Assembly: GCA_030737835.1 (NCBI GenBank)
Contig: CM060852.1
Coordinates: 9,902,507-9,966,506 of the forward strand
Direction of reading: 5' to 3'
DNA: 64,000 bases
Source: Acorus gramineus
Taxonomy: Eukaryota > Streptophyta > Magnoliopsida > Acorales > Acoraceae
The notes below the pieces were generated by a model. It ran no database searches, was not told the origin of the DNA, and was given only the letters and a program-made list of their open reading frames with translations. Position 1 is the first letter of the stretch; every line of letters starts with the position of its first letter. Made by a program: the position numbers and the translations under genes. Shown in pieces: positions 3,001 to 18,100 of the stretch.

Positions 3001-6000
3001 ACATGAGAAAATATTCTAACTTCTGACATCTCATCCCAATTATTAATTAGTTGCTTTCCTATGACTCATCCACATCCGAGCCACAATGAAAGAAACCAAA
3101 TTAATTCCATGCTTGTATAAGAAGCTGAACTTGCTCCAACACTAAATTAGACATATCCATACATATATGACTAAATATTTTTTTGTAGAAACAGTTATCT
3201 ACCTCAGAGCAACTTCTTTGCGAACAGCATACCGAATCTTCTTGTCAAAGCACCGCTCTTTCCGTTTTTCACGGAACCTAATAAGAGAAGCAACTCTCTT
3301 CGCTGGCATATTTGTGCGCCTTAAAATATCATCTAATCCCTGATGAACAATAGTGCAATCCAGATGAAGACAGTTAAATATAGATTATAATTTATTATCC
3401 TAAGAAAAAATTTAGTGGTCAATGAAATACCCTTGGATCCTGATGAGGTATAGCCAAAGCAGTCATGCTAGATGGTACTTCACACCCTCCTAATAATAAT
3501 AATACTGCTTGTACCTGCAGTACAAGTCCTTAAAATTATCACATTTGACATAAATATGATACCCATATACTCAAAAGAGGAAGGTGTAGTCCAACATGAG
3601 GAATATTAGAGTTGATGACAACAATATAAACCTTCAGCACAATAATGTAAATAAGACAAGAATAATGATTTCATAACCAAATGGTCCAAAACTCATATCC
3701 ATTATGCTAACCATGTCACATACTAAAGCAGTCATGCTAAATGGTACTTCACACCCTTCTAATAATAATAATACTGCTTGTAGCTGCAGTACAAGTCCTT
3801 AAAATTTCATGTACCAAATGGTCCAAACTCATATCCATCATGCTAACCATGTCATCCATCATACTAACCATGTCTGTATCGCACATCAGCAAACAAAGCA
3901 AACTAAAATAAGCAGGAGTTGGGTGTGCAATTCATCAGAGTTCTTACATAAGATATCTTGTTTGTGGTTTACTGAAATTGATACTAAATAGTAGTAGTTG
4001 ACACAATTGCATCAGTGATTCAATAACACGCTGTCCAACAAATTTACATTCACTGGCATGAATATACAGAGAGTCTGAAATGCAGCTAAGCTGAGAACAT
4101 GAACTGTATCATACCATTCCACACCTCCACGGTATCATATTTCAACCATGTGTGGATAGTAATATGCAAAACGACTACACATGCAAAGCTGCATCCACAC
4201 AATTTACCTACAGAATACAGTAAAATGTCTATTTGAAAATTACATGCAGTGCATATAGCTATAGACAGGCTGGAAATCTTCTGTGCAATAATATAGTGAA
4301 ATGCAAATATTTGTTGTAAATAAAGGACTTTGTTCCATAAATTTAACGACCTCTATAATTTATCCAAAAATTCTGGTGGAGTAAAGCACTTATGTGTGTA
4401 TACATATAGGACTTGGATCAATAAATTCATTGATTACCAAATAGTACTTTAAGATATATACACAGCCAAAGTTACAATTGTGTGGCATATTAAAGATGGA
4501 TTGACTTCATTAGTATCCGATTTGAAACCAGGATATTTTTTAAGGGAGCACAGTTTTACATTGAGAATATCTGGTCTAGTGTGAAATGTTTCATCAAGGA
4601 CGGGGAAAAAAATTGTGCCGGTGCTGGCATGGTGCATTTCATAGGAGGAAAACTGATGATTGATTAATCGTGCGGTGTTTGGTCATGGGGGACAATAGAT
4701 ATCTCTTCTACTGTCCTGCGTAGTAGTGTAGTGTGCAGGGTGTTTTTCTTTTCTTTATCTACCCTTTCTATCTGCCACCCTGATTTGTACTTGGTAGCTT
4801 GTCTACCAATTCTTTACAAAAAAAAAAAAAAGTGTCCCTGCTCAATGTATTGGAACAAAAAGTTTGTCAAACATTTTGGACCAGCAACACACTTGTTTAC
4901 TCAATGGGGCCACTTACATAAGCCCGTCTCTGGAAAAAAATTCATCTATTTTGTAAATGGTATTACAGAAGAAGCAACATAAGTTATACAACTTCATAAT
5001 TGAAAAGGCCATAAAGGCAACCATGCCTTCTTTAATATGGAAAAATCACCAGCCTCTACTGAAAGCACCATAATTTGAATGAACTAAACCAATTGATTTA
5101 CCTCAAACTAATCAACGATCGCAAATAATACAAAATCACCTCTACTAGGTAATATCCCAACACAGGTTCCTCATGCTACTTGTTAGTCGATTTGGCTAAC
5201 GCACAAGAGGGTGCCTTCATGCACAAAAGTATGTATTGGGAAAATACTTGGTTCACAATTTCTTCAATGTTATCGGATTGGGTCAAATTCATCTTAGAGG
5301 AGCCTTTGCCCAGTTCCATCATGGGAAACAATTGGGGGAGAGGATAGCTTAATATCTAATTGTATTTTCCTTTTCTTTAATTGTAAAGAGATCCCTCATC
5401 TCCTAAACCCGGGGGTTTCTTGAAATAAGATTCTCCTATATTTCCCTCAAAAAAAAAAAAAAAGAATCAGGGAGAGTCCCCCATCATTTTCAAAATATAT
5501 ATATCATGTGATAGGTATGATAAAAAAACCTGCCTATTAGTATCTCAAATGGGACCCAAATAAAAGATGACACTGACTATGAATTAAAATCTCAAAAAGA
5601 CAGTTATGATTATCCATCCAACCTGTTAACAGACCACAATATTAACCATCATTGTAAAATGTCCACAATTATTCTATAATAAATTGAGAATGCCATGATG
5701 AACATAAAAGAAACATAAAAAGAAAAATCAAGAGAATTCCCACTAAAACATTGAGGAGGGGAAGGAAACTAACCTTTTCGGGCGTGACGGAATCAAAGAC
5801 GTACACCTCGCCCTGGTAGAGGAGCGTGAGCTGGTTCGAGTTCATGTTCAGAAGAGGCGCCGCCGCCGCCTCAGAGTCCGCGAAGTTCTCCACCACCTCC
5901 GAAGACGGCGGAATCACCTCCACGATCGCCTCCATCTTCTCCCCTCCACCACCACCGCCGCCTCCGCCGTCTGAGTCCTCGAACACGTCACCACCATCCC

Positions 6001-6067
6001 CGTCGGTGGCTCGCCCCTGGACGTGCTTCCCTCGCTCGTCGCTCATGTGCTCGTCCTCTCCGTACAT
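1..6067 (-). CDS. TIFY/CCT/GATA zinc-finger transcription factor (ZML-type), 3' end outside window
   Basis: Nuclear DNA-binding regulator of the plant ZIM-like GATA class. Seven exons were read on the minus strand: 6067-5774, 3514-3431, 3339-3203, 2069-1950, 1432-1327, 240-172 and 57-1; phases all agree (289 codons visible). Domain order is typical: acidic and poly-Gly N-terminus, TIFY motif (TLLYQG, then EVYVFDSV across exons 1-2 into [10 protein letters not shown]), CCT domain ([20 protein letters not shown] in exon 3, ending [12 protein letters not shown] across exons 3-4), then a C-X2-C-X20-C-X2-C GATA finger (CQNC...CNAC) in exon 5, followed by GTLRS. The first ATG of the open frame is at 6067; the four codons upstream begin with TTG. 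Leader DNA carries AAACCCTA telo-box-like sequence. The family binds GATA-type sites; targets are unknown here. The C-terminus lies left of the window. A broken copy of exon 2 sits in intron 1. Confidence 0.93.
241..1326 (-). other. GATA-gene intron 5 with a palindromic MITE copy
   Basis: AT-rich intron of the GATA gene. The only structure I see is the TACACTATGATAG / CTATCATAGTG palindromic repeat at about 1040-1200, related to copies near 43.7 and 45.9 kb. Confidence 0.7.
1040..1200. repeat. Palindromic MITE, copy A
   Basis: Contains ACACTATGATAGCGT and ATGCTATCATAGTGCAT in mirror arrangement. Its reverse complement matches 45885-46050 over most of its length, with the same order of blocks: GAGATAC, GTGTATTTTTTTT, CTATGATAG, TATCATAGTGTAT, CGCTCTT. 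Confidence 0.6.
3515..5773 (-). other. GATA-gene intron 1 with retroposon-like insertions
   Basis: A 2.26-kb intron. Besides the duplicated exon it holds two poly-A-tailed tracts on the plus strand, about 4690-4831 (A-run at 4818-4831) and about 5300-5463 (A-run to 5463). The second resembles 10440-10577 (GAGATCCC...ATCTCCT...GGGGGTTTCTT) and looks like the 3' end of a truncated LINE or SINE. No protein-coding remnant was recognised. Confidence 0.5.
3725..3808 (-). pseudogene. Duplicated, truncated copy of the TIFY exon in intron 1
   Basis: This block repeats exon 2 and its 3' splice site (3457-3540) with few changes. It reads [15 protein letters not shown] then SMTAL and keeps the CTGCAG acceptor, but breaks off inside the exon before the donor, so it cannot splice as a normal exon. 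The flank at 3677-3724 (core CCAAATGGTCCA...) is itself repeated at about 3814-3860, so the region looks like local tandem duplication rather than retroposition. Confidence 0.8.
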
Positions 6068-9000
6068 TGCCCCGACCAACGCCTCCGATCGATAATTCCA
6101 AGAAACCCTAGATCGAATTCACCGGGGGAGGGGGGAGGGCTTCTTGCCTTCTTCCACTCCCCGAATTTGATAAACCCTCAATCGAAGAATAGAAAGGAAA
6201 ATTAGGGTTTCCTATCGAAAGGGGGATTCGGAATTGATATTCTCCAAAAATGGGAGCAGACGACGACGACGATGAAGATGATGAACGGAATTCATGATGA
6301 TTTGACGAGTACCGTAGGATTCGATGGATGATGTAAATCAAGACCGTCGGTTTCGATGTACCCGCAGCATACGAGGAAACGCTTTTGTGCACGTGGGACC
6401 CGATTCGCTGACACAGAGGACGGTAGAGCCGTTAAGGTGAGGAGGTGTTTTGACCGTTCGATTTGGATAGAACGGTTGAGAAGACTTTTGGGCGCGTGAG
6501 GACCACTGCTTCAGAGGGGGATCACGTGATTGTTTTGGAATGTGTTGTGATTGGTGCTGGTTCCCACAACGAGTAGCAGTTCTTGCCTTTTTTTTTTTTT
6601 TTTTTTTTTTTTGAAAAAGTAATTTTTATCGTTTAGAAGTCATACCACTTTTTTTTTTTTTTTTAACATAGTAAACATAATTTAATGAATTATATATATA
6701 TTTTGATAAAAAGTAAATATTCCTTTTATTTCGAATTGAATGAATCAATTTTTAGTAAGTGTAAAAAAATATTTACTGAGGTATATACATCGTCTAACAA
6801 GGTATACGTTTCATTGAATTTGTAATAAGATTATATGTCTTAGTGTAACAACTCCCTTTTCTTTTTCTTGGTCCAGATCCAAGTCTGGGTATTATCAATA
6901 CCATCACTATCGAACTATATAACTTATTAATCGAACTACACAACTTATGTTGTACTGCGTAGTTCGATTCATAGGTTATGTAATTCGATTAATAAGCTGT
7001 ACAGTTTGATATTGATAATACTCATAGTATCAAGCCTGATTGGATCTGACTTTTTTTTTTCAACTTTGTGTGTGTGTGTGTTTTTTTTTTTTTTGGGTAA
7101 GAGTGGCTGTGTCTAGCATCCGAAATTGAGTAGCAGTGATTCACAAGAGATTAACGTTAATGACGCTAGGGACATGGGGAATGTATATTGATTTTTTAAA
7201 ATAATAAATGATATCTAATTAGATATATGTATATACTTCATGATATATACCTCGATAATTATCCATCGTAATATATGTATTATCCTCAAGAGGAGTACTC
7301 CATGGATTGTGTGCAACAACGCTCTTTTTAAAATTTGACGTTTCAAATCCAACTATTGAAAAATATTATTTCCATAGCTTTTTAATTGAATCTTAACAAA
7401 GGAAATATGGATGGGTGAGTTTAGAAATTGTAAGTGGAAAATATATCTGGATCAACATTTGAGAATTTTCTGTTTCAAACATTGAATCAACTCAAATGCG
7501 AATCCAAACTAATGTGCAGTTGATTTTCAATAAAAAAAAAATATCTAATTTCATTTTTTAATTTCTAGAATACATATTTTATAAAAATAAACATACTATA
7601 CACTCATACAAATGATAACTAATGTCAAAGTATATGATTTTGGTAGAATTAAAAGTATGACCGAGTATAATAAAATTTGATTTTGTTAAAGTATATAGAA
7701 ATTGTATTGTATTAGCAAAATTCCTTAAATTATTGTAGTCTAGACTATGACACTGTAACTCAATGCGTACATATTTTACTAAGGCACTGTTTGAATCCAA
7801 ACGACTGCAACAACACTTTTTAAAAGCAGAGAAGGTTTTCAAAAAACCAGCGATTGAAACTCCATTTCAAAAAGGGCCTATCAGATACAAATGATTGGTT
7901 TTACTTATTTATTTTTCATGTTAATATTGTTAGTTCATGTATGCTACTTAAAGGTGACTATTGAGATGGATTGATAAAAACCTGTCCCAGGAGAAATTAA
8001 TTTAAATTCCACCACTATCCATGATGCTTCTCAATATCTACTTGTAACATTGAGTGGAAACCTAGCATCAACCAACTCCAAAAACAGTCTACTCCTTTGT
8101 ATCCCAAACATGGATGCACAATTGCCATGTCTGAAACTTAAACATCAACTGGTTTGGGAGATTTTTACCTTCCTCACATTACAACAATCCCAGAAAAAGA
8201 AAATCGAATCCAAGATCTATTTCCAGCCATGCGGTCTCCGTTCATCGGAAGTGGGTCACCAAATTACAACAGAAGTTGTCAAAGAAATAGTACATCCAAT
8301 GCAGCTGATGAGAAACAGAGAATTCCAATAATGTGGATAAGAACACTATAAAACAATCACATGTTTAAAGAAAAGAAGTGAAAACTTTGCATCTTGGGGA
8401 GAGACTAGCCAATATCACGTTAATATCCATCAGTCAAAAAAGGGAAAAGAATAGTTGTATCTTCAAAGGCAAAGCCCTTAATTTTATGGAAACCATGAGG
8501 TTTCATGCATGGCAAAATAACCCACCTGAACCAAGATTGATGGAATCATAACACAACTCATTCATGCTGCTTTACTTATTCTTGGATTCATAAACAAATA
8601 TTTAAAAGCCATTGTAAGATAAACTCACAGGTTCAGATGAAAACAGCCTTTGAAAGTGCAAGATCGGCTGCATGGAATGTAACATGGCCAATGGATCGTC
8701 CTGTTTCAAGCATATCTAACAATCCCAAATGTTTCATAGAGAATGACAGATAAGCTCAATACATAAAAGATTAGAGCATTCAATTCAACACAGATACTAT
8801 AAATGATTTGCTTTTATTGCTTTATGAATATAAGTAAAAAAATATGGATTCCATCAGTTCCCTTCTCCCCCTTTAGTCATGGGGAACTATCAAAATTTTA
8901 TAACACAACTGGTCCTAATAAACACAAATCCTTACCCTCTTCCGTAGTACATACAAGCAGATCTCCCTTCCACAGCTTCCCATGAGTGCAAGCCCATGCA

Positions 9001-9178: not shown

Positions 9179-12100
9179 CTAATCGTTAAAATCCTCATAT
9201 GAACCACTTGAGGAATCGCTTTGGAATGGAGTGGTTTCCCTTGGAGATGATGGGAGTGATTCTTTTGGTTGTGATGTTGAAGCTGAAAAAAGAAGTCAAA
9301 TGCAAGGACAACAGGTTGTCAGATTTTACTAAGCTTTTTGAGAACAATAAAAATAGATTTCCAGGGAAACATTCAATTGACTAACTCATTTAATTGATTG
9401 AAAACACCACACAGTTATCATTTGTCCATGCAGTAATCAAACACGACACACTTTAAGGCAAAAGGATGCCACAGGGCTAGACATGTTTCATGAAGGTTCA
9501 AAAGGCGGCAAAGGCAATGATATAGCTTGAGAACTGTTTTATGGATTTGTTTGGGCAGTTTCTGGCAGGAAGAGACTCAGCTAGCTCGATGAAACAGCAA
9601 TGAAGGGTGCAGCCCAAATTTGAGATTCCATTGCAGACCACTATGACCCAAGGTAAGTTAAAAATTAGTTTTATCCTTTTTCAAAAGAATAGATAGTGAC
9701 GGACATGATGAGAAATGCTACATGTTCCTTTATAGCTTTATGTTTAAAACCTATCATTCAAATGAGACATGAAATCACCTGATCCTCTTTGACCTCTGGA
9801 ACGGAACTTCTTCGTGTGATGCCTTATAAGTCTCTTGGCTTTTGTTATAGTTAGTTGTCTTGCAAAAGGAGGTACATCAACATCACTATCGCTCCACTCA
9901 CCATGGAATTCATTTTCTGCATCACCTTTCATTGTTCTCCTGACGAAGGCTGTAGCCTTGCGACGCTGGGAATTGAACAGCCCTCTTATGGAAGTGACAA
10001 ATCCATCACCAGCTCCATCACTAGGTCGCTTGAGCCATGAGATAGGAAACTGGTCAGATTCTCCTCCCTGTCCTCCATCACTATCACTTAAATTAAGATC
10101 ACTGTCAGGAACACTGCCCCCATTAGAGTCCCTGTGGCTTTGAGCTTTGTCCTTGAATTTTTTGCCCTACATATATTGACAATAAATAGAAGTGTTATTT
10201 TAATTGATGAAATCAAAATGCAAGACCAGTGAAATGTAAATAAATGCAAGCCAGAAACATGTTTGGCTCATTGAGAATAGCCAAGGGATCCACGAATACA
10301 TTAGTTTCACTGAAACAGATGAATTATCAATAAAGATTCATTTTCATCATGCTTCCAACCTCATTTCTCCATCATCCTTTTTTGGTCAGGTGAGTGGTGG
10401 AACTTGAACCTACGACCTCAGGGTTGCAAATTTTTAATTATTGAGAAATGAGTCTATGGCCCAATTTATCATCTTCCTGAGTTGTATTGATACATGAATT
10501 TTGTAGAGATCCCAAATCTCCTTTTCTTGGGGGCTTCTTTTTAATAAAATTGCTCCTACCTTTCTCTTAAAAAAAATGACACTTGAATTTAATTGCATAA
10601 ATTTTTGTCCCTTCACCGGTCTCAAGAGGTAGGCATCACAGATGGCTAAAATGATTTACTTACCTGCATGCCAGTCACGGATTTTAGGACGCCCCAGATA
10701 ATGTGTTTCTTGACTTGTGAAAAAAGCTTCCTCCAAGTACCAGTAAAGTCATCACGATAAAATGTATCCATCAACAAGCGGAGGTCATTGACTGCGAATC
10801 TTGATCCTTCGTAAGTAACAAGCAGTTCGACCTACATAATTATTAACAAAGAATTTTACCTGCAGCTACTACCATATTTTATTTAGTTTTATACATGGGA
10901 ATGAAACAAACCTGGCTAATTTTAATATTATGAAATTCCATCATCTTCCGAGCCCTAGATCTCTTCTCATCTTGTAGTTTTGTAACTTTCTTTTCTTCAT
11001 GAGACAAGCGACCGGATCTAATAGGCTTGGAGCCTTTTTGTTTGTTCTTGGAAGTCTCCTCATTGAGGACATTTTGAGGTTCAGTACCTGAATTGAGAAT
11101 GCCAGTTCTTGAGGAAGTGACACTCGAGGAATGAACTTGTAGTAAAAGTTCATTAGCCACTGACTCGACCACATTTTCTTCCCATGTTCCATCACATGAA
11201 GATGTTCGTCGGAGCTCAGAACTAGAACCACAGACCATATTTGCTTTTAGATTATGCAACTTTGACACCTGCATGAAAACCACCACAAAGTTTCTGGAAT
11301 TATATAAACATAAAATGAGTTTTTATTTTAGCTATGAAAATTTTTCCTTGCTGATGGAATGATATTGGAAATTTGCATCAGCAATAATGCTGTCAACATC
11401 TTGATCTAACACGTCACCCACAATGCATGGCCAAGGTGGGTCAGACCGAGAACAAGTTTAAGAGCCTTTTTGACCAAATTTTAATGCCCCATTATTCAAT
11501 AAGCCAAGGCTGCCAAGAAGACGAGACATAATTGAAAAATGGATCTAAGCCTAAACATGGACCAAACCCATGGCCTGACACAATTGGCAAAAAATCAACC
11601 AGATTTGGTGCATTTAAGAAGCAATACACCCTTGCTAGATACTAATGATATATGACACCATTCATAAAAACAATTAGCTTGACTGGAGTGGCTCTAAATA
11701 AACTCACTTGAGATGTGTCACTGTGAGCAAAAGTTTGTGAAACAGCACCAGCAACTGAAGCAATTGCAGAAGCACCCAATTTTGATGGAGCATCATTTTC
11801 TCTCACAGTGTGGCTAATTGAGGGATTTGATTCAGGCAGTGAGAAAATTTTTTTACCCCGTCTTGAGCTTGCCGTTGTTGAAACTTTCCATACCTCCTGC
11901 ATGTTGCCAAGGTTGTTAAGATGCAAGATGGACAAAAAAAAAGTTTAGGGACACCAAAAGAACACAGCTCACCTGTCGTCTTTGAGAATCTTGCTCTTCT
12001 TCAGGAAAAAAATACTCCCACATCATTCTGTACATTGTTTCTGTCAAATATATCTTTAATGGATAAATCTCAACCTACATGGAATAAATAAGTTAATGTA

Positions 12101-15100
12101 ATAAATACCTTCATCACCACAAATTATTCTAATGAAGACAAAAATAGAAAATAAGAATTTCTTCTAAAACTTAAAAATATATCAAGAAGACCATGTACAA
12201 TGATGGCAAACTTGCGAGAAACAAAACTTCGACAATGCAAAAGTCCACCACACCCCCAAGAAAATGTGTGCAGAATGCCCAGATGCACACAACTCATCAG
12301 ATATTAGTTTTTTGGGATTTTTAGTTTTAAGGCCCTATAAATATGCCTATTTAGAAATCGATCCGTCCCTTCTTCATATATTTTTTTTAAGTCCCCAACT
12401 TCAACCGCCTATTTCGTTTTTAGTCCTTTTGCCAAACGTTCTTCCATTACCATTAATACGTGAAATGTGATTTTTATTTTTAAGTCCATGTAAATTATAT
12501 TATTTAGTGATCACTCCCTCACTTCTTCATATTTCATTTTAAGTCTCCAACTTCAAACCCTTTTTTATCCCTAAACAAAATAATAATGAATGAATAACCT
12601 GTTACCAAAAAACAGAAGTTATTTAATGGTATCCACCAAACCAAAAAAAAATATTTTTGACTTTATAGATATTTAATGCATTTGATTGTGACTTACTGTT
12701 TTTCTTTTTTGCAATTGACAGATTGATTTAATGGATGATTTTAAAGTACAAATTTCATGCAAATTCAAAAATTAAAGTGTCATTTCTTTCAAAAATTTTT
12801 GTTAGAATTAGACAAACAATAGGTGGTGTTGAAACCAAAGAAAAGTTACCCCCCCCCCTTCTCTCTCTCCTCTTTCTCTTCTCCCTCCCTTTTTTATTAT
12901 GGGTGATGAGTTTGAAAAAAAAGTAGGGAATAACTCCTATATATTTTTCTTTCAGTATCAACTGAAATCCCATATATGTTGTCAACGATGTATACTCACA
13001 TTAACGACGTATATACCTCTTTAAAATTTTTCATATTTTGTATAAATGTATTATTTTAAACAAAATATATATAAAGGGTAAAGGGTGAAATTAAATTTTC
13101 TTAAACCCAAACTGCCCTAGGATTGCATTTAGGGTTGTAAAAATAATTGTGTATAACAACGTTCTATACAATAAGCAAACCTAATTTCACCCTCTACCCT
13201 TTATATTTAATTTGTTTAAAATAATACAATTATACAAAATACAAATTTTTTGAAGAGGTATATTCCTCGTTAATGTGAGTATAAAGCGTTACAATATATA
13301 TGAGATTTGAGATGATACAGAAAAAAATATATATATACCCAAGTACCCAACTATTGTTTGGGAGGAGTTATTCCCTACTTTTTTTTTAAATCCATCACCC
13401 ACAATAAAAGAGGGAGGGGGAAGAGAAAGAGGAGAGGGAGAGAGAGAGGAGGAGGATATCTTTTCTCTGGGTTAAACACATCACTCATTGTTTGCCTAAC
13501 ACGCAAACAAAAAATTTTGAAAGAAAGAACACTTCAATTTTTTACTCTGCATGAAATTTGTACTTTAAGATTTTTCAATAAATGAATCTATCAGTTGCCA
13601 AAAAAACAAAGAAAAGAAGTCACAATCAAATGCATTAAATATCTAGAAAGCCAAAAGTAATTTTTTTGGTTTGATGGATACCATTAAATAACTTCTGTTT
13701 TTTGGTAACGGGTCATTCATTCATTATTATTTTGCCGAGGGACTAAAAAGAAAAAGATGTTTGAAGTTGAGGACTTAAAATGAAATATGAAAAAGAGAGG
13801 GACTGATTATTAAATAACAAAGTTTACCAGAACTTAAACATAAAAATCACATTTCACAAACTAACGGTATATGCATGGACGTTTTGCATGTTTTGCAGAG
13901 GGACTAAAAACGAAATAGACAGTTGAAGTTGGGGACTTAAAACGAAATATGAAGAAGGGAGGGATCAATCCCTAAATAGGCATGTTCCCAGGGACTTAAA
14001 ACTAAAAATCCCTAGTTTTTTTATATTATACAAAAGAGTAGTGCATGAGGGTAATTTGTACCAAATATATAGATTATTAAAATTTGATTATTTGCAGGTG
14101 TAATATGTTGGTGCATGCAGCTATGTGATATGCTTCCTTACATGCTTTCCAAACCAGTGTTCCCTCTTGTTGGAGAAAGCTCATCCTCATATTTCTAAAT
14201 TCTCCATGTCATAATGCCCATTTTTACACCCTTTTCTCTAAAACATAATCATGCATTTCAGAGAAAATTTTGGATGATCGCACAAAAAGGATTGCCAGAA
14301 GTTGGACTTACATGGAAAAGTTCAAGAGGAGAATTTCCATGTTTTGGAGCTCCCTGCCTAGCATCCACACGAAGCATTACATTCCTGTCACACCAATAAC
14401 AAATATTAGGATACCGGAGTTTGCAATTTCTCTGGTATTATTTATTTATATATTTATTCTATTAGTCCCCTTGTATCCAATTAACATGAAGCAAACAAAA
14501 GAATTGACAGAATTGCCAGTCAATCATAACAATGGGAAGAGAGAAAAAAAACAACCCCTAAAAAATTTCTTCTAGTCATCATTTTCCCTGCTGGTAAGGA
14601 TATAGTCTTCAAGCTCAAAGGTTAACACCAAGATTATCCACTACCTTGCTTAGTCTTGGTCCTCCAAGATCAAAATAGTCATATACAGCGCTAAACAAAA
14701 CAAATTTGATTCACAGTTTTATATCAACACCTCAATCCTAAATTCAAGACCTTCCCTGTCAGAGGTCTCTTATTGATGATTTCTTTTTCTTTTCGATTTT
14801 GACACTGTAGTTGTCTAGAGATGACTTTACCCCCTTGGTCCAATCCAAAAAATAAAGTTCCTCATTTCATGAATTTGTAGGTCTTCATTTTCATTTTCCA
14901 CGGCCTAATCTTACGGCCTGTCATTTTCGTAGATTTTATAATCATGCTAACTCTGTAATTATAACACCAAGTGAATCAATTGACAGAAACCCAATACCAG
15001 TCAAGAAGAGCTTAATTGATTTGCTCTGATGAACAGAACCTCCTGCAAACTAATCTACTATCACATTGCATTGTGACCTATGTGATGGAAATCATGCTAA

Positions 15101-18100
15101 CTCTGTAATTATAACACCAAGTGAATCAATTGCCAGAAAACCCAAAACCAGTCAAGAAGAGCTTATAATTGATTTGCTCTGATGATCAGAACCTCCTGCA
15201 AACTAGTCCACTATCACATTGCATTGTGGCCTATGTGATGGAAACAGATGTTGAGTATGCCTCTCATGTGAATATGAGGCGTCCAACATAGGATTAGCAT
15301 AAGACCCAATAGGCAGAAACCATATCATGTAATAAAAAAAGGTATATGATAAGGCTGGCTTTGCAGAAAGCATCACAGCTGGGGACTGTCTAAAAGTATG
15401 CATGTGCGTGTAACTGTGTTTTCCTGTGCAACTGTGCAGGCATGTGGTGAAAATATCTCAATTTCTTAATACTGGATGAGCAGGCTGAAGTAAGGATCAT
15501 ACTTTCCCCATTCAGGAGGAGGATTCCAGGCTGACAGCAGCATATCAGATTTCGTTTTCGGTAGGCAGTTCCTCACAACAAAGAATTTTGTTGTAAACTG
15601 AGAGACGCCTATATCTTTATAATCACGATCAAAATCATAGATCTGTCAAATAAGTACAAGAAAATGTGAATGAGAGAAAATGTAAAATTAACTTTTAAAA
15701 ACAGTTTACATTAGCAATAATCACCAAAGCAAAGCCACTGGCCTTTTACATTTGAGGCTTGCAGAGATAAGCATAGGCAAAAGAAAGTACATAAAACAAA
15801 AAAAGAAAAAATTTCTAGGCCATAAAGTTAAATCAACTCTTCCAAGGAAAATAGTTAATGCAATGAATAACACATCAAAAAGGCCAAGTAAATTAGAAAG
15901 AGGATCATGACATCCCCTTAATGTCATTTGGTTACAAAGAAATTACTCAACATTTTAAAATTATGTTTAAAAGAGTATTCAGATTTGGAGGCCTAAATCT
16001 AGGACCATTTTTTAGTAGGGTTCAAATAGACATTTATGAAATGATTTCAAAGAAAGAATTTAAACTGGTTCCTGCATTCATCCCTGGAAGATTACCAGTC
16101 AAACAATCTTTTATACGCCAATTGGAAACAGACTTGTTCTGATGCAGAACCACTATAGAACGTTTGAATGGCTAATATTGACGAATTAGAGCCAAATCAA
16201 CGTAGAATAAATTTCATAAGAAAATCCTTCACCTGGGGATGACGAATTTCAAGAAAAGCCCTGGAATGGGGAACATGGCAGATAATAGCAATACATACAG
16301 CTATATCGAGTGTTTTTTACTACGTTGATCAATTGAACGGATAAAAAATCAGATAAACTAAGAAATCAAAGTCACTTACGTTTGAGTATGCATACTTATT
16401 CATCCTAAAAGATAGTTGAATACACAGATAGAGGTGTACCATCAGAGATTGCAGTTAAAACCAAATAATCAGAAAAGAAAGATAAAATTCAAACAAAGAC
16501 AAATTTATGAAAACCACTGTTACTGTACAGATTCCTTGTATTCCAACAACATTAAATGCTTCGTAGCCATAAAAACAAACCATGGTTTCTATAAATATTT
16601 GCATGTTTAAATTCTTAAGAGACTAAGCAGTCAAAACGCTTCATACACCAATGTGCCGATTAATTCCCTGTTGAAGATGTGTCAATCAAAATAGTCAAGC
16701 AAATTTCTATCTATTATTATGCACTCACCATGTTATTTATTTCAGCTTCAGCAAATGGTTTACCATCTGCAAACATACCCCATTCTACTTTGTCTATTCT
16801 CATAGAAATCCGCATGGCATAGGAGGGACTTTTGTTCTTCTCTTTCTCCATCAACCTTAACTGCGCAGCTTTTTGCAAAGCCACCCTTAAGGCAGCAATT
16901 GCAGCCTTTCTAGACTTCTGTATGTTTCCAAGGTCTTTCTTCAGTCCTTGCACCTGAGTATTATATAGAAATAGGTTTAAACTTTCATTGGAATCAAAGA
17001 CATACTGAAGCATATAAACAAACTAGATGATTCTTTCAAGTCTTTCAATCCACAAGTAATATAAAAATCCAAATCATGTCCAACAAAATGCAGACCACTC
17101 CAACAGTTCACTCTGAAATTAGATTAGTAACACTGAAATCATATGATTCAACTGATTTAGATGACATGGGGTAATATAATGACGACAAAGTCTCTGGTTT
17201 AAGATATACGTAATTAAAATAAGAACATTAAAAAATTGGTGGAAAAATAGGTTGTACAAGCATAAAACTTTGAATTGGATGCTTTTGTGGGAACTCAGAA
17301 AACATTCTTCCTAGACAAACTCACAAAATTATATGAGGTGCTTTGAGCATGTGAAGTGAAATTAGACCCTTCGAAAACGAGGAACATATTGTGATAAAAT
17401 AACTTAAGAGTAATACTTGACAAGAAGACAGGAGAGAAGTGATTTTATTTTTATTTTTTTGGGGAGGGTGGTTGTTGACAAAAGACGGGAGCCGAGCTCA
17501 GCACGTAGAATTTTATTAACAGTTGGTCATCTCCAACAAAGAGGGGGACATTAAGATCTTACCCCAGTAGAAAAATAACAAAACATTCTGAGAGACGACA
17601 GAAAGGTAATTAATTAAAAGAGGATTTGGTGGATTGTTCATAGTGAGGCCTTGCCCACTAAGTTTGCTTGCCAAAGAGAGAATTGAATGACCACATGGGT
17701 CATAAACAATGCATTTGTGAATTCCTAGAGAGCTTCCAGCCTACTTTTCATAGAATTGCTGTCTCACCAGTAATGATTTTCCATCAGTTATCATCCACAG
17801 GTCATAGTCCTTTTCTGCAGATGAGAAAAGGTCCCCTGAAAGATCACCAGATACTGAAAGAGTACGGATGTCATCAAGCAGCAACTTTCGTTCTCGCTCT
17901 CTCTGTTCCAGTTTGATTCTTGCAAGTTCAACCTCTTCAACGCCATCAGGAACTACCTCATCTGCCTCCTCTTCAATATCTTCATCATCCTCTGCAGGAT
18001 ATGTCAGACTGCTTTTTCGAGGTCTGGAAAGAGCATATAGTATTAAAGCCACATTAAAGATAAAACAACTATCTAAGCAACATCAATTTATAAATGGACA

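What the first reader, a model, noticed from the sequence alone, without database searches (positions are those of the whole stretch)
12305..14021. Near-perfect 1.7-kb hairpin element inside a SABRE intron with exact 9-bp target duplication
Arms of about 0.8 kb with only a short loop would fold into a very long double-stranded RNA in the SABRE pre-mRNA, a natural substrate for DICER-like enzymes and a possible source of 21-24-nt siRNAs. Termini GGGATTTTTAGTTTTAAG and the TAGTTTTTT duplication place it with Mutator-like foldback elements. It encodes no transposase and may be an undescribed non-autonomous family.
Basis: partly seen in the sequence, partly recalled or inferred. Interest (0 to 1): 0.72.

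Follow-up and report, generated by a model that had tools for sequence, protein, structure and literature searches.

The report
Tandem-repeat foldback transposon in SABRE intron
A 1.7-kb non-coding jumping-gene copy that folds back on itself sits in an intron of a large plant gene; it belongs to a family with thousands of matching ends in the same genome and looks largely ordinary for plants.

Summary
The element is real: 1,699 bp (12314-14012) between exact 9-bp repeats TAGTTTTTT, in a 2.2-kb intron of a minus-strand Hobbit/FMP27 (SABRE) gene. It is not near-perfect: arms are 87% identical over 794 aligned bases, plus 111 gap columns; 30 of 849 left-half 21-mers have an exact complement in the element. 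The genome holds 3,258 matches to the family's 21-base end (reversed control 9). Of 22 delimited relatives, 14 have exact 8-9-bp target duplications at unshifted ends; 44 of 46 ends carry two tandem repeat units. A ~275-bp miniature form occurs too. This is the published architecture of tandem-TIR Mutator-like elements. The inner arm is rare: one sibling element, one single-arm locus without family ends, and one 88-bp piece. Equivalent arms of the two elements are closer to each other than the two arms of either, so the hairpin formed before both insertions and moved as a unit. No transposase was tied to these ends in 20 neighbourhoods. Small-RNA production is plausible but untested. New member of a known kind.

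The parts
12305..12313 (.). left target site duplication TAGTTTTTT
14013..14021 (.). right target site duplication TAGTTTTTT
12314..14012 (.). whole foldback element, 1,699 bp
12319..12426 (+). left external terminal repeat unit (89% to family unit)
12472..12565 (+). left internal (tandem) terminal repeat unit (82%)
13740..13845 (-). right internal (tandem) terminal repeat unit (76%)
13901..14007 (-). right external terminal repeat unit (91%)
12575..13117 (+). inner module, left arm; its stretch 12620-12990 was found elsewhere only in the C9 sibling, the C2 single-arm locus and one 88-bp piece on C43
13118..13734 (-). loop and inner module, right arm; start and end are the limits of the match with the single-arm locus L029:4588-5116
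12991..13051 (+). core of a second dispersed miniature element inside the left arm
13223..13283 (-). inverted copy of the same second-element core in the right arm
12075..14311 (-). host intron of the Hobbit/FMP27 (SABRE) gene
14312..14384 (-). upstream flanking exon
11973..12074 (-). downstream flanking exon

Best explanation
A non-autonomous Mutator-like foldback transposon with tandem terminal inverted repeats. Shown: ends shared by a large family, 8-9-bp target duplications, two terminal repeat units at each end, a rare interior held as an inverted pair, and a sibling element on contig 9 with its own target duplication. Inferred: a transposase made elsewhere recognised the terminal repeats and moved the already-formed hairpin as one unit into the SABRE intron, where it is spliced out with the intron. 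The interior was perhaps acquired as one single-copy stretch (like the locus at C2:31267087) and copied back on itself, possibly by template switching at inverted pieces of a second miniature element near the hairpin centre; that last step is a guess. A small-RNA role is possible but not needed to explain the element.
For: Terminus GGGATTTTTAGTTTTAAGTCC (up to 2 mismatches): 1616 + 1642 places in 398.6 Mb; reversed control 7 + 2. Of 22 relatives delimited (list): 9 exact 9-bp and 5 exact 8-bp duplications at unshifted ends, 3 exact 8-bp with ends shifted by 1, 2 in A-runs with a shift of 3, 2 with one mismatch, 1 none (which tried shifts up to 4 at each end). Not all are independent: L005/L007, L042/L045 and L043/L044 share both duplication and interior. 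Short form: 17 fetched, 9 exact 9-bp, 1 exact 8-bp, 5 with one mismatch, 1 with two, 1 with four of nine, that is none. Tandem unit at 44 of 46 ends. Sibling F = L030:3937-5476, duplication TTTTTAAAA. Arms: 29 sites group E_left with F_right and E_right with F_left, against 5 and 4 for the alternatives; the 5-sequence ML tree has that split at bootstrap 100 with 200 replicates. Inner arm: 6 of 6 first-look candidates scored; places are E, F, the C2 locus and one 88-bp piece.
Against: No transposase was tied to these ends. Of 8 MULE-domain loci (about 1.5 kb each side) none held family sequence. Of 12 stretches of 2.6 kb upstream of DBD_Tnp_Mut domains, 3 did (L080, L085, L088); I judged these to be neighbouring copies, because L080 holds a 275-bp form and the transposon beside L085 has its own, different ends, with no family right end in the 8.0 kb read. 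No empty site in a relative or paralog. One of 22 relatives and one of 17 short copies have no duplication, and L031, dropped before the count, had none either. Duplications are AT-rich, which makes chance matches likelier, above all for the shifted ones.
Confidence: 0.88

Rival explanations
1. The intronic hairpin acts as a regulator: its pre-mRNA stem is diced into 21-24-nt siRNAs that silence the transposon family in trans, as was proposed for maize Mu killer.
For: Predicted fold of the minus-strand transcript -917.5 kcal/mol against a mean of -420 (sd 32) for 12 other stretches of the window; 725 arm-arm pairs; 9 stacks of 21 or more pairs, wobble pairs included. It shares an exact 21-mer with 22 of 22 relatives and a 24-mer with 19 of 22. 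The 17 short copies also share one, but they were picked for an exact end that this element carries, so they prove nothing; a 24-mer is shared with 2 of those 17.
Against: Only 30 of 849 left-half 21-mers have an exact complement in the element. Introns are usually spliced and degraded quickly (general knowledge). No RNA data. For Mu killer itself, plants that silenced had short antisense transcripts and read-through transcripts went with failure to silence, although the authors leave a minor role for long hairpins open (PMC3440606, passages).
Confidence: 0.1
2. The structure is a local inverted duplication made in the intron rather than a transposon that arrived whole.
For: Composite make-up, including pieces of a second miniature element.
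Against: Exact 9-bp duplication at its outer ends, and a sibling on another contig with the same order, its own duplication, and arms that match arm for arm.
Confidence: 0.03
3. The single-arm locus at C2:31267087 is a decayed element copy, not the source of the interior.
For: It is closer to the E_right/F_left arms (0.151, 0.155) than to the others (0.187, 0.192).
Against: At 23 sites that separate the two arm groups it sides 12 with one, 9 with the other, 2 with neither, as an outgroup would. Its 9.9-kb surroundings hold no family end, and its match stops at the border of the family arm.
Confidence: 0.45

Closest known systems
Mutator-like elements with multiple (tandem) long TIRs, Ferguson and Jiang 2012 (PMC3310237; abstract and passages seen)
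   Same: Two tandem terminal repeat units at both ends, non-autonomous, a size peak at 1.3-1.4 kb in tomato; both-end tandem forms reported there in tomato and Arabidopsis
   Different: Their most copied tandem form had 29 copies in tomato; this family's end occurs thousands of times (short forms included). Units here are about 107 bp at a period of about 152 bp. 8 of 23 elements here are inverted repeats end to end.
Tm1 Mutator/Foldback family of root-knot nematodes (PMC3169594; passages seen)
   Same: Composite terminal inverted repeats, mostly 9-bp (8-10) duplications, MITE-like and larger forms
   Different: Nematode family with 13-15-bp tandem units; a transposase-bearing member is known there, not here
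FARE foldback elements of Arabidopsis (recalled; paper not held; the Tm1 passages call it a foldback element with a MULE-domain transposase)
   Same: Plant foldback shape with a MULE link
   Different: Not compared by sequence
Maize Mu killer (PMC3440606; passages seen)
   Same: Inverted duplication within a Mutator element, beside a host gene
   Different: Mu killer carries transposase sequence; the longest frames here have no Pfam match
5,892-bp element with an 886-codon frame holding a DBD_Tnp_Mut domain, C3:32342935-32348826 of this genome
   Same: TTTTTATTT on both flanks once each end is moved by one base (unmoved, one search found no match); its end shares 18 of 20 bases with positions 15-34 of this family's end (E 0.006 to 0.04)
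   Different: Outermost bases differ (AGGAAAAATCGATATAACTCCC); inverted repeats of 86 bp; nothing else ties it to this family

Membership tests
Mutator-like elements (MULE) | 8-9-bp (mostly 9) target site duplication | tested here: met
   for this copy; 14 of 22 relatives exact at unshifted ends; 10 of 17 short forms exact
Mutator-like elements (MULE) | long terminal inverted repeats | tested here: met
   family arms of about 260 bp; whole-element inversion in this copy
Mutator-like elements (MULE) | MULE transposase within the same ends (autonomous partner) | tested here: inconclusive
   20 transposase-domain neighbourhoods read, 3 with family sequence judged to be neighbours, none with the ends placed around the gene; the tool scored 150 of 1162 PF10551 and 150 of 471 PF03108 first-look candidates
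Tandem-TIR MULE | second terminal repeat unit in tandem at both ends | tested here: met
   both ends of this copy; 44 of 46 ends in 23 elements
Foldback element | inverted repeats making up most of the element | tested here: met
   arms cover the element except a loop of about 68 nt
Pack-MULE | captured fragment of a host gene | tested here: inconclusive
   rare interior with a single-arm genomic counterpart, but no coding match in the longest frames
MITE | short (under about 600-800 bp, recalled) non-coding element in high copy | tested here: not met
   this copy is 1,699 bp; the family's 275-bp form would fit
siRNA-producing hairpin locus | 21-24-nt RNAs from the stem | not testable with these tools
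   no RNA data available

The most novel reading that the evidence does not exclude
A captured single-copy stretch was turned into a hairpin by fold-back copying inside a tandem-TIR MULE, and the product now sits in a transcribed gene's intron, where it serves as a standing small-RNA source that keeps a family of more than a thousand related elements silent: a natural Mu killer made by the family itself.
Probability: 0.05. Interest if true: 0.7.

Novelty: new member of a known kind. Interest (0 to 1): 0.3.

Why it matters
It gives a clear example of a tandem-TIR MULE family with thousands of ends in one genome, from 156-bp miniatures to 1.8-kb elements, with one case in which the order of events can be read: the hairpin formed first, then spread. 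That makes two old questions testable: how foldback MULEs form their arms, and whether intronic copies feed the silencing of their own family.

Tried and rejected
Rfam scan of 11500-15000: two hits to a bacterial leader at 23.4 and 20.4 bits (cut-off 50), treated as chance. Exact 23-mer of the inner arm in viral contigs: 0. No tRNA in the window. Autonomous partner: of 12 stretches upstream of DBD_Tnp_Mut domains, L080 holds a 275-bp copy and L085 and L088 hold family fragments about 1.7-1.9 kb from the domain; L085 even starts with a family end, but it is followed by an inverted family piece, and the transposon next to it has its own ends. Compared by eye, 14 MULE-domain places (8 on C1, 6 on C2 below 20.15 Mb) lie nowhere near the 100 terminus places that one search printed, out of 3,258. 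I first took D for a relic of one arm; the site count (12, 9, 2) left source and relic open.

Rows dropped before the 23-element counts: L004 (no right end in the locus), L031 (no duplication found), L032 (several overlapping pairs) and the second, truncated pair in L041. L040 was too short for the interior comparison, which covered 22 elements. Relatives were taken from the best hits to this element's left arm, so they lean towards its subfamily; the 17 short copies were chosen because both ends matched the terminus exactly. The 12 fold controls were stretches of the same window, not shuffles.

Full report
Observation. The window holds a 1,699-bp inverted repeat at 12314-14012, flanked by exact TAGTTTTTT copies. 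Two random 9-mers of this window were equal in 2 of 200,000 draws. The arms have 690 identities, 104 mismatches and 111 gap columns, and 30 of 849 left-half 21-mers have an exact complement in the element; 'near-perfect' is therefore wrong. The element lies in intron 12075-14311 of a minus-strand gene; 7 of 10 frames tested match PF10344 (Hobbit/FMP27/BTLP2; SABRE is the plant name, recalled) over the cut-off and one under it. The flanking exons join in frame. Without the element and one duplication the intron would be 529 bp. The three longest frames touching the element have no Pfam match at E 0.1.

Family. The genome is held (398.6 Mb, 137 contigs). The outer 327 bases gave 50 matches with 40 of 2411 first-look candidates scored; only this element's two arms and the contig-9 sibling match over all 327, and the others stop at about position 269 or before. 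The end GGGATTTTTAGTTTTAAGTCC with up to 2 mismatches occurs 1616 times forward and 1642 reverse; the reversed pattern 7 and 2. I delimited 22 relatives of 636-1824 bp. Target duplications: 9 exact 9-bp and 5 exact 8-bp at unshifted ends, 3 exact 8-bp shifted by one base, 2 within A-runs shifted by three, 2 with one mismatch, 1 none. Three pairs share duplication and interior and are probably duplicated loci or haplotypes, so independent insertions are fewer. Many exact ends in the printed list lie about 275 bp apart; of 17 such short copies fetched (156-457 bp), 9 have exact 9-bp duplications, 1 exact 8-bp, 5 one mismatch, 1 two, and 1 none.

Anatomy. Each family arm of about 260 bp holds two tandem copies of a ~107-bp unit (84% alike in the consensus, period about 152). 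Both units were found at 44 of 46 ends; the left ends of the contig-9 sibling and of L048 lack the inner one. The 22 interiors compared fall into three groups; this element shares its own only with the contig-9 sibling. Eight of 23 elements, this one included, align to their own reverse complement end to end, so whole-length hairpins are a recurring outcome in this family.

Interior. Search with the inner arm (12620-12990) scored all 6 first-look candidates: this element, the sibling on contig 9 (L030:3937-5476, 1,540 bp, duplication TTTTTAAAA), a locus on contig 2, and an 88-bp piece on contig 43. The centre (12960-13320) gave the same three loci, a 73-bp piece of the loop on contig 129, and many copies of a ~60-bp dispersed repeat (58 matches, 40 of 242 candidates scored). 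The contig-2 locus D (L029:4588-5116) matches element positions 805-1421, the loop and one arm; no family end was found in its 9.9 kb. The dispersed repeat is the core of a second miniature element of about 300 bp, seen in an alignment of 13 other loci; the hairpin centre holds a degenerate copy of it and an inverted part.

History. In a four-way comparison 29 sites group this element's left arm with the sibling's right arm and vice versa (the sibling is read in the opposite direction), against 5 and 4 for the alternatives; both internal splits of the 5-sequence ML tree have bootstrap 100 with 200 replicates. The arms had therefore diverged before the two elements parted: the hairpin formed once, then moved as a unit, and arm divergence does not date the SABRE insertion. 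D behaves as an outgroup to both arm groups (12, 9 and 2 of 23 sites), which fits a source locus, but its raw distances lean to one arm and an early relic is not excluded.

Transposase. The genome is rich in MULE domains (1162 PF10551 and 471 PF03108 first-look candidates, 150 scored in each). None of 8 PF10551 loci holds family sequence. Of 12 stretches upstream of PF03108 domains, 3 do (L080, L085, L088), which I read as neighbouring copies: L080 has a 275-bp form, and the transposon beside L085 has its own 86-bp ends (93% alike) and no family right end in the 8.0 kb read. That 5,892-bp transposon carries an 886-codon frame with a DBD_Tnp_Mut domain, TTTTTATTT on both flanks after moving each end by one base, and an end in which 18 of 20 bases match positions 15-34 of this family's end (E 0.006 to 0.04). 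It is a weak lead to the mobilising lineage, not a demonstration.

Function. The folded minus-strand transcript has a predicted energy of -917.5 kcal/mol against -420 (sd 32) in 12 other stretches of the window, with 9 stacks of 21 or more pairs counting wobble pairs. It shares an exact 21-mer with 22 of 22 relatives and a 24-mer with 19 of 22, so siRNAs from it, if made, could reach the family; the 17 short copies were picked by a shared end and do not test this (2 of 17 share a 24-mer). There are no RNA data, and Mu killer, the analogue I know best, did not behave as a simple read-through hairpin in the study seen (PMC3440606, passages). I hold the plain transposon reading.

Comparison. Tandem-TIR MULEs were described by Ferguson and Jiang (PMC3310237, abstract and passages seen): mostly non-autonomous, with both ends doubled in tomato and Arabidopsis. 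This family meets that description. It differs in abundance, in unit size and in how often the element is a hairpin throughout. Papers printing the end sequence: 0. Verdict: new member of a known kind, modest interest.

Noticed in passing
window 12991-13051 and 13223-13283; L016-L028 at about 1501-1562: A second dispersed miniature element family of roughly 300 bp with ends like TGTTAC...TTTTTCAGCCCCAATT and GAGGCTGGAAAAAGAGACTGTACGTAACA; pieces of it lie inside the hairpin centre.
   Followed up: partly
window 14940-15244: A 153-bp tandem duplication (2.0 copies, 94% matches), apparently in the next upstream intron of the same gene.
   Followed up: no
window 5669-6115, minus strand: A frame with a tify domain (Pfam PF06200, E 2.3e-10) downstream of the SABRE gene; ZIM/GATA or JAZ-type genes carry it (recalled).
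   Followed up: no
L043/L044, L042/L045, L005/L007: Pairs of family copies with the same target duplication and interiors 95-100% alike, suggesting duplicated segments or uncollapsed haplotypes in the assembly.
   Followed up: partly
L034:1372-2392 and 6424-7448: Two related family copies (interiors 89% alike) 4 kb apart with different target duplications.
   Followed up: no
L085 with L091 (C3:32342000-32350000) and L088: Two transposase-bearing loci share an upstream stretch that holds a fragment of this hairpin family next to a different transposon.
   Followed up: partly
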